Shown here in pieces: positions 35,901-38,900 of a DNA stretch of 64,000 nt. The translations under genes and the position numbers were made by a program. Source of the DNA: Amphibalanus amphitrite (lineage: Eukaryota > Arthropoda > Thecostraca > Balanomorpha > Balanidae); contig NW_024882328.1 in NCBI RefSeq assembly GCF_019059575.1, positions 186,001 through 250,000 of the forward strand, in the 5' to 3' direction. Each line of letters starts with the position of its first letter. Position 1 is the first letter of the stretch. The notes beneath the pieces were generated by a model that saw nothing but the letters and a program-made list of their open reading frames with translations, ran no database searches and had not been told where the DNA came from.

Positions 35901-38900
35901 GCGCGTTTTTTTTTTTTTAGAGACTTTGAACTGCATTCTTCATAATTTTGACATATCTAATACCAGTTTCAAATAGTATCTCTCATGTCGAGATATCAGT
36001 AATATGCCCGAAATCTGCGGTGTATCTCTTCCACCAGCCCTTCGGTTTCCAAACGATGCTATCGTCATTTCCGGCCGGCTGGGTTAGGCGGAAATGGTGG
36101 CCGCTGAGATACCGGGGAACGGGCCGGCCGTTCGCGCCAAGGTCAGCCGACGTCCCCCCTCCCCCTCCCCGGTATGGGACAGTTCGGCGTGGAGCGAGCG
36201 GTGCCGAGAGCAGGCCTGTCAAAGTCGCTCGGCTTGGACACATTTTCCCATACTGCCTATATTGGAACAGTCCCTTCGGTAGCAGTAGTTATTGAAGCTA
36301 TGCGACTGAGAAGTGAGGCCAAGGCAATACATAGTTTGTTTGCTATCAAGTACCGGGTAGTACAGTTCGGCTAAAATTGCACTGATTTATAAATGCAACG
36401 TGATACATTTTACGGTAAAACAGCAGTCGGGGGCAAAAGTTGAATAAAATTCACAATGTGCGCCCACTTTTGGTTCATGCAACCGTTTATACGTAAAAGC
36501 GATTGAAACCAGTGGAAGATGTATGTAGCGTAAATTACAATGTTTACGTCTCATCGGCCACTGATGAAAATGCAGTTATTTTATTTTTGCTCTGGTTTTT
36601 AATCAGCTGAAAGTAATCTTCATATAGTCAAAATAATATAGTGCTTTGCGTCAAAGATCAAAAAGCCATGAAGCCAATCCGAGCACCCAGTGACGGTCGT
36701 GTATCAAGAAGCAGCATTACATATTTACCCGTCCCACGCCGTGCGGGCGCCGGGCACTCACCGGATACCGGCAATTTTCGCTCCTGACCACCCGGGCACT
36801 CACCGTATACCGGCAATTTTCGCTGCTGACCACCCGGGCACTCACCGGATACCGGCAATTTTCGCTCCTGACCATCCGGGCACTCACCGTATACCGGCAC
36901 TTTTCGCTGATGACCACCGGGCACTCATCGTATAGCGGCAATTTTCGCTGATGACCACCCGGGCACTCACCGTATACCGGCAATTTTCGCTGCTGACCAC
37001 CCGGGCACTCACCGGATACCGGCAATTTTCGCTCCTGACCACCCGGGCACTCATCGTATTCCGGCACTTTTCGCTGCTGACCACCCGGGCACTCATCGTA
37101 TACCGGCACTTTTCGCTGCTGACCACCCGGGCACTCACCGTATACCGGCAATTTTCGCTGATGACGACCCGCGTGGCGTAGCTCTCGTTCCAGGCCTCGA
37201 TGTGCAGTGTGCGCGCGCGTCGGTCCAGCGAGTTTTTCTGACGGAAGTAGATGTACTCGACGCCCATGATCTGCCAACACGCAGGATACATCGGGTCATG
37301 ATAGAGCAACAGCACGCACATGTGCTTCCACGCCCGCATACGGCGGCAGTTTTTCCGACAGACTTTTCAGAGTGTTAAAGTTTTCGCTGGATGTTCAGGT
37401 GATTGGTCCTAAGTTAGACCAAAAGATATGCCATTGCACCGGCAATATGAGTCTCCTGAGATAACGACATTCCTCACATCAATGGAAAGGGGTTCCCAAC
37501 AGTTTTGCTAACTGATACGTTGCAGGCCAAATATAAAAATATCGTCATGCAGATTAAGCTATTCGCTAAGTAGAAATTAGTTTAGGGGGAATCGTGATTA
37601 AAAGCTAAACATGTTTTATTATTGCCCCTGCAGGGGCCATTACTGGGCTGCTCGCGTCTTGTAAACAAGATTTGCGGAAGGAATCATTCTGCACCGCCCG
37701 ACATAATTCGCCGAATTTCACGGGTATGCCATGGCCCATGCCTTCTGACTGTGGACGGACTATGAAATGTGGAATCTGCCAGCCGGGTTACTCTATACTT
37801 GTCAGTATGACGGCACGGCAATAACCATTGCTATAACATTTTTAAGCACGCATTTTCCGAGGCCCATCAACGTCTCTTCATTACACGCATGTATAAGTCA
37901 AAGTGTCTGCCACCGCCTCAATCGATGCGAAACGGTCCGGCAATCTGGCCCAGTACGCCCACAGCGACCATGTGCCTCTACCGACCCCATCTGTGGCGAG
38001 TGTTGACGACCCGACCGCGGCGGTCGGCCGGTCGGCGCAGCTGTGAACGGCCGGCCAGCGCGCCACACTGCAGCACGCGCCGCCAAGGTCGCTGGGTCAC
38101 AAGGCCACCGGCCCGGAGTGACTGCGATTTCTCGACGGTGCGTCACGGGACGACTCGGACCCGCCGGCGGCCGCCCTGCACCGGTCAGCCGCGACGGTCC
38201 TCACTCCTCGCACCGCAGCGCCAGTCCCGGACCCGGGCGTCAGACGAGACCAGTTGAGACGGATTGTTATGAAAACGAGCAGCGGGTGGACCGGATAGGC
38301 GGCTCTACAAGCCTACGCGATGCTCAGGAGACAGGTGTATGTATGTCAGTAAAAGATACGACAATGGACCGACATACTGATTGTCGCAAGGTACCATGGC
38401 AAATGACTTAATTATTAAATAATAATGTCAGAAAATATTCGCACAGGGCTCAGAACAGACGGAAAATGTCCCCAACAAGACTTAAGACTTATAACAGTTT
38501 GAAGTTTCTACGGGCCTGAGACTGACTTGTGTAGGACTACCGGTCGGTGACCGCTTGTGCAGATAAATGTGGGGTCGGTGACCGCTGATGCAGGGCAATG
38601 TGGATTGTGGGGTCATTGGCCGCTGATATAGGGCAATCTGGATTGTGGGGTCATTGACCGTTGATACAGGGGAATGTGAATAGGGTTGGGACCTATCTGC
38701 ATGCTCTGTATGTTTTGGTAAAATAAAAAAGCTCAGAATTTTTAATGATTTAATTTAAAATCACTTTGTTAAAAAAATGCCTAGTTAGTTCAGAAATTAA
38801 TTATTTGTGGCTGAAAACAACTTGCTTCTGATTGGTCGGGCTAATCATGACGTCACATGTAGGTATATAACTGTCTGTATATTTGGCGCAGTTGAGACAT

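What the first reader, a model, noticed from the sequence alone, without database searches (positions are those of the whole stretch)
36750..37168. Minisatellite seeded by an exon end and its splice donor
Ten 42-bp units each consist of the last 30 nt of exon 3 and the first 12 nt of intron 3. Seven keep a GTGAGT donor. Since 42 is a multiple of 3, donors at the seventh and sixth units stay in frame and would extend the PRELI domain by 42 or 56 residues. The 41-bp unit makes the outer donors frame-shifting. This could be a copy-number-variable source of splice isoforms in a conserved gene.
Basis: partly seen in the sequence, partly recalled or inferred. Interest (0 to 1): 0.8.

Follow-up and report, generated by a model that had tools for sequence, protein, structure and literature searches.

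The report
Minisatellite grown from a splice donor
In a barnacle gene, the end of one exon and the start of the next intron have been copied nine extra times in a row, leaving seven equally strong splice signals; the copies look like neutral repeat growth, the one gene annotation seen uses only the first signal, and a human gene already shows the same arrangement.

Summary
The 419 bp at 36750-37168 (minus strand) are the last 30 nt of exon 3 of SEC14L1 (real-time), nine tandem copies (eight of 42 bp, one of 41 bp) of "first 12 nt of intron 3 + last 30 nt of exon 3", and a final 12 nt. Seven of ten donors are GTGAGT, three ATGAGT. The window lies on a 322,217-base contig; the Amphibalanus amphitrite (barnacle) SEC14-like protein 1 isoform X2 is listed on a contig of exactly that length, fits this gene stretch by stretch, and splices at donor 1. 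Donors 4 and 5 are in frame (+42, +56 residues); donors 7-10 lead to early stops. All seven intact donors score about equally, so their own sequence does not explain donor 1. None of 242 retrieved homologues carries the repeat peptide, and 7 of 8 variable sites between units are amino-acid changing, as expected without coding constraint. Copy-number polymorphism and real donor use could not be tested. Donor-spanning minisatellites are a known kind: the human CBS 31-bp VNTR joins 24 nt of exon with 7 nt of intron. Best reading: a locally seeded, near-neutral minisatellite with latent donors, giving at most minor isoforms.

The parts
37139..37270 (-). exon 3 of SEC14L1/real-time (132 nt, 44 codons, IMGVEY...NCRYT), preceded by AG acceptor; its last 30 nt (37139-37168) are the seed
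   Evidence: residues identical to P0001
36750..37168 (-). donor-spanning minisatellite: exon end + nine extra units + final 12 nt
36762..37138 (-). nine added units (eight of 42 bp, one of 41 bp), each 12 nt intron start + 30 nt exon end
37133..37138 (-). donor 1, GTGAGT, the donor used by the annotated isoform X2
37091..37096 (-). donor 2, dead (ATGAGT)
37049..37054 (-). donor 3, dead (ATGAGT)
37007..37012 (-). donor 4, GTGAGT, in frame, +42 residues
36965..36970 (-). donor 5, GTGAGT, in frame, +56 residues
36923..36928 (-). donor 6, dead (ATGAGT)
36888..36928 (-). 41-bp unit that shifts the frame of all donors beyond it
36882..36887 (-). donor 7, GTGAGT, frame-shifted, stop in exon 4
36840..36845 (-). 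donor 8, GTGAGT, stop inside the extended exon 3
36798..36803 (-). donor 9, GTGAGT, stop inside the extended exon 3
36756..36761 (-). donor 10, GTGAGT, stop inside the extended exon 3
34199..34327 (-). exon 4 (VHPENPDWTCFEQ...), acceptor TTTGCCAG, phase 0
11822..43799 (-). coding span of the SEC14L1/real-time gene (start codon at 43799; last residues of P0001 match down to 11822)

Best explanation
A tandem duplication joined intron position +12 to a point 30 nt before the end of exon 3 of barnacle SEC14L1, probably at a short CGG identity shared by the two sites. The copy then grew into a ten-donor array by repeat slippage or unequal exchange. Splicing in the main transcript uses donor 1 and removes the rest as intron. 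The other six intact donors are latent: any use of donors 4 or 5 would add 42 or 56 residues at a beta-hairpin turn of the PRELI domain, and use of donors 7-10 would give truncated protein or decayed mRNA (decay from general knowledge). Structure and frames are shown; the origin at CGG, donor-1 preference in living tissue, near-neutrality and length polymorphism are inferred.
For: Unit = 12 nt intron start + 30 nt exon end, 9 added copies. The exon is the source: it encodes RVVISENCRYT, close to RVVINENCRYT of Pollicipes and similar in other homologues. CGG lies at both break positions in the unduplicated flanks. The unit search found 5 matches, all at this locus, and exon 3 with flank 1 match; the tool calls such counts lower bounds. 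The units between donors 4-5 and 8-9 are identical, and the array also aligns with itself at 167 bp, pointing to block turnover. P0001, listed on a contig of the same 322,217-base length, joins CRYT directly to VHPEN; all 627 residues of my exon model are in P0001, and stretches covering all of P0001 match the window. 7 of 8 variable sites change an amino acid, expectation 0.73-0.75. Of 242 homologues retrieved, 220 could be measured and 216 of these have the same 22-residue spacing across this junction. Minisatellites are common here: 42 arrays in 20 sampled 10-kb stretches.
Against: All seven intact donors score alike (9.96-10.09, U1 duplex -10.5 kcal/mol), and below the donors of exons 1, 2 and 4 (11.1-12.2), so nothing in the donor sequence explains use of donor 1 alone. 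P0001 stands for 6 sequences in a 90%-identity cluster and is called isoform X2; the other members were not seen and could differ here. P0001 comes from the same contig, so it is no independent check on the array. No RNA data were available.
Confidence: 0.75

Rival explanations
1. The array is a working source of protein isoforms: donors 1, 4 and 5 compete, and repeat number and dead donors set the ratio of PRELI domains with 0, 42 or 56 extra residues.
For: Donors 4 and 5 are as strong as donor 1 and in frame with no stop; the insertion point lies at the end of strand 106-116, next to the loop 117-123 of the modelled PRELI domain, a place that may tolerate it.
Against: None of 242 retrieved proteins carries the repeat words; 216 of 220 measurable homologues keep the spacing exactly; unit differences look unconstrained.
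Confidence: 0.12
2. The array lowers SEC14L1 output: a share of transcripts uses intron-proximal donors 7-10, hits early stops and is degraded, so array length tunes expression, as the CBS VNTR is reported to go with reduced activity.
For: Four of seven intact donors are frame-shifting with stops in the extended exon 3 (donors 8-10) or exon 4 (donor 7). A review says more CBS repeats decrease CBS activity (PMC5188458 passage). SRSF1 promotes choice of the intron-proximal site in human DOK7 (PMC5585400 passages).
Against: No expression data; the gene is conserved, so a large loss should be selected against (inference).
Confidence: 0.1
3. Assembly artefact: the true locus has one donor or another number of units.
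For: Tandem arrays are a common place for assembly error (general knowledge); raw reads could not be examined.
Against: Units differ from each other (18 differences in 378 positions, one of them a missing base; mean pairwise 7.7%), which simple misjoining of one unit would not create.
Confidence: 0.03

Closest known systems
Human CBS 31-bp VNTR, c.1444_1467+7(16_21), exon 13/intron 13
   Same: Repeat unit is the exon end (24 nt) plus the intron start (7 nt), as read from the notation, in 16-21 copies, so the donor is repeated (PMC2630376 passages; boundary location also in PMC5188458 and PMC1395315 passages)
   Different: 31 bp is not a multiple of three, 42 is; human copy number varies and is linked to enzyme activity, here neither is tested; unrelated gene
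Internal tandem repeats at exon-intron boundaries of human segmental-duplication genes (De Grassi and Ciccarelli 2009, authors recalled; PMC2812944)
   Same: Minisatellites (units of 30 bp on average) at exon-intron boundaries that can change splicing; 27 intron modifications reported (abstract and passages seen)
   Different: Those are recently duplicated human genes with transcript support; here a conserved gene, one copy of exon 3 found, without transcript support for change
CBS 844ins68
   Same: A duplication of an intron/exon junction that yields two competing splice sites, one strongly preferred (PMC2630376 passage)
   Different: One 68-bp copy of an intron 7/exon 8 junction, not a donor array

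Membership tests
Donor-spanning minisatellite (CBS 31-bp VNTR kind) | Unit made of exon end plus intron start | tested here: met
   30 nt exon 3 + 12 nt intron 3
Donor-spanning minisatellite (CBS 31-bp VNTR kind) | Several copies retain an intact donor | tested here: met
   7 of 10 GTGAGT, all of similar strength
Donor-spanning minisatellite (CBS 31-bp VNTR kind) | Copy number varies between individuals | not testable with these tools
   One assembly, one match of exon 3; no other individual held
Donor-spanning minisatellite (CBS 31-bp VNTR kind) | Length affects gene activity | not testable with these tools
   No expression or genotype data
Splice-isoform-generating boundary repeat (PMC2812944 kind) | Transcript evidence for altered gene structure | tested here: inconclusive
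   Annotated isoform X2 uses donor 1; no repeat-bearing protein among 242 scanned; other members of the 6-sequence cluster not seen
Splice-isoform-generating boundary repeat (PMC2812944 kind) | Host gene is a recent segmental duplicate | tested here: not met
   Exon 3 plus 60 nt flank gives one match in the assembly (lower bound by the tool's note); a whole-protein search of the assembly did not complete
SEC14L1/SEC14L5/real-time gene family | PRELI, CRAL-TRIO N and CRAL-TRIO domains in one protein | tested here: met
   P0001 carries PF04707, PF03765, PF00650 as precomputed

The most novel reading that the evidence does not exclude
A copy-number-variable ladder of seven equal donors acts as a heritable splicing dial for SEC14L1: the number and order of intact donors before and after the frame-shifting 41-bp unit set the balance between normal PRELI domains, in-frame extended ones and decayed mRNA.
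Probability: 0.1. Interest if true: 0.7.

Novelty: new member of a known kind. Interest (0 to 1): 0.35.

Why it matters
It is a natural ladder of seven near-identical donors at almost fixed 42-bp steps in one intron, behind a well-conserved exon. That makes donor choice by position, with strength held constant, directly testable in a natural gene, and it adds an invertebrate case to a human precedent (CBS). If length variants differ in splicing, it would be a repeat-based splicing variant in a widespread fouling animal (recalled). If only donor 1 is used, it shows how firmly position or exon context overrides equal competitors.

Tried and rejected
Coding constraint on the repeat peptide: unsupported; 7 of 8 variable sites are amino-acid changing, against 0.73-0.75 expected among non-stop changes; the script's binomial value of 0.42 used 0.77, and with 8 sites the test has little power.

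Selection for dead donors next to the exon: the two nearest added donors are both dead, but with 3 dead of 9 this happens by chance 7 times in 84 (own arithmetic), so it is not evidence.

RNA folding as the reason for donor 1: predicted mean accessibility of donor 1 (0.25) is not the highest of the ten (range 0.16-0.65 over both span settings), so rejected as an explanation.

Is a donor-covering array improbable by placement? One 422-bp array placed at random in the gene span covers a donor in 16% of trials, and at least one of nine gene-span arrays does so in 50% (which used 13 donors and left out two exons that I placed only). So position alone is not remarkable. What stands out is the repeated strong donor: none of 42 arrays (period 10 or more, three or more copies) in 20 sampled 10-kb stretches, and none of the other 9 of 10 such arrays in the window, carries three or more donors scoring 9.9 or more on one strand. 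That cut-off lies just under this array's own scores. The donor weights and the U1 5' end were recalled, not fetched.

Papers: no paper in the held library matched barnacle + alternative splicing + SEC14 or the boundary-VNTR wording. Searches (20 of 30 listed; 5 of 6 listed; 10 of 46 listed) gave the precedents cited and, by title and abstract start, nothing closer. Other papers listed there were seen as listings only, except PMC5628181 (passages; an intronic VNTR, not at a boundary), PMC5585400 and PMC2964331 (passages).

Full report
What is there. On the minus strand, exon 3 of a SEC14L1 (Drosophila real-time) gene runs from 37270 to 37139 and ends ...GAA AAT TGC CGG TAT ACG, followed by GTGAGT. 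A recalled human SEC14L1 sequence finds the gene in order along the minus strand. Starting with the last 30 nt of exon 3, the sequence repeats: nine further units, eight of 42 bp and one of 41 bp, each made of the first 12 nt of the intron and the last 30 nt of the exon, then a last 12 nt (36750-37168). TRF reports the same array. Ten donor positions result: seven GTGAGT and three ATGAGT.

Which organism. A protein search with my exon model gave SEC14-like protein 1 isoform X2 of the barnacle Amphibalanus amphitrite as best match (P0001, 91% over the query). All 627 residues of my model are in P0001; the differences are four stretches that I had not modelled, and matches from 43799 down to 11822 cover the whole of P0001. 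The longest contig listed for P0001 is 322,217 bases; the window lies on contig C831 of an 807,550,619-base assembly, and C831 is 322,217 bases long. I take the window to be the locus on which P0001 was annotated.

Frames. Exon 4 starts at 34327 in phase 0. Splicing each donor to it in a script gave: donor 1, normal; donors 4 and 5, in frame with 42 and 56 extra residues; donors 2, 3 and 6 lack GT; donor 7 reaches a stop in exon 4; donors 8-10 reach a stop inside the extended exon 3. The 41-bp unit between donors 6 and 7 causes the shift. A stop reported in 'exon 5' for the in-frame donors comes from my running past the end of exon 5.

Donor strength. With recalled weights all seven intact donors score 9.96-10.09 and pair equally with the recalled U1 end (-10.5 kcal/mol); donors of exons 1, 2 and 4 score 11.1-12.2. 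Predicted RNA folding does not single out donor 1. Use of donor 1 must therefore come from something else, such as exon context or distance. Published work on other genes shows that SRSF1 and TIA proteins shift such choices (PMC5585400 and PMC2964331, passages).

Evidence on use. P0001 joins CRYT to VHPEN, i.e. donor 1. A search with a protein containing four repeat units, scored on that part alone, returned 7 proteins among 714 candidates, led by the two barnacle sequences, which lack the repeat. A shorter repeat-bearing query returned 209 proteins, of which the best 120 were listed; the first search had listed 120 of 1494. I scanned the 242 sequences held after these searches: none had the repeat words. 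The spacing from NES(F/Y)-like to HPEN-like motifs could be measured in 220 of 242; 216 had 22 residues; 22 had no match to the pattern. The four exceptions are two with inserts at exactly this junction (P0102, P0174; they read like retained intron or an extra exon), one with the equivalent of exon 3 duplicated (P0132, a sturgeon model) and one short one (P0206). This absence is weak against rare isoforms: the database shows cluster representatives, and P0001 stands for 6 sequences.

Origin and evolution. The exon carries the conserved sequence and the units carry derivatives of it, so the exon seeded the array. Both break positions lie at a CGG in the unduplicated flanks, consistent with slippage or end joining at 3 nt. 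Units differ at 8 of 42 positions, 18 differences in 378 (one of them the missing base); the units between donors 4-5 and 8-9, four units apart, are identical, and the array aligns with itself at 167 bp. Seven of eight variable sites change the residue, close to the 0.73-0.75 expected, so there is no sign of constraint on the peptide, though the test is weak. The searches found the unit and the exon at this one place of the assembly, so I could not compare haplotypes.

How unusual. Minisatellites (period 10 or more, three or more copies) number 42 in 200 kb of sampled genome, 4% of its bases. Random placement of an array of this size in this gene would cover a donor in 16% of trials (two exons left out). 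None of the 42 sampled arrays repeats a strong donor three times. So the raw material is common and the outcome is not, but no special mechanism is needed. 200 kb is a small sample (about 0.02% of the assembly).

Protein consequence. In an AlphaFold2 model of P0001 built on 28 sequences (mean pLDDT 64, pTM 0.41; residues 111-120 and 121-130 at 92 and 89), the junction after residue 115 lies at the end of strand 106-116, before the loop 117-123 and strand 124-134. Extra residues would sit at a hairpin turn, where a domain may tolerate them; this is inference. I did not model the extended forms.

Comparison with what is known. The human CBS 31-bp VNTR, written c.1444_1467+7(16_21), consists by that notation of 24 exonic and 7 intronic nt repeated 16-21 times (PMC2630376, passages), at the exon 13-intron 13 boundary (PMC5188458 and PMC1395315, passages; the former calls it non-coding). 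The 2001 paper by Lievers and colleagues on it was seen only in reference lists. PMC2812944 reports tandem repeats at exon-intron boundaries that change splicing in human duplicated genes (abstract and passages). The barnacle array is the same kind in an unrelated gene, with a frame-neutral unit length. It is a new member of a known kind.

Verdict. The functional claim, a copy-number-variable source of isoforms, remains possible but has no support in the data reached here, and the simplest account is a near-neutral minisatellite whose extra donors are mostly silent.

Noticed in passing
59929-62913: Large near-perfect inverted repeat: arms 60068-60379/62464-62775 (312 nt, 99%) and 59929-60067/62775-62913 (139 nt, 96%) around about 2.1 kb; may be a foldback-type mobile element.
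   Followed up: partly
17393-18381, 20190-20237 and 52406-53639: Several minisatellites of different period (18-135 bp) share an AGGCCCC core in their consensus units, suggesting one repeat motif spread and re-amplified.
   Followed up: no
1461-1846, 2868-3134, 3927-4363: Two ACCCCT hexamer arrays and a perfect 437-bp TC dinucleotide run.
   Followed up: no
38542-38678: A second minisatellite (periods 31 and 38 bp, GGTCGGTGACCGCTGAT...) in intron 2, upstream of exon 3.
   Followed up: no
P0132, P0102, P0174 (homologues, no window coordinates): A sturgeon model carries the equivalent of exon 3 duplicated, and Timema and an unnamed sequence carry inserts exactly at the exon 3/4 junction: the junction position appears conserved and prone to mis-splicing or misannotation.
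   Followed up: partly
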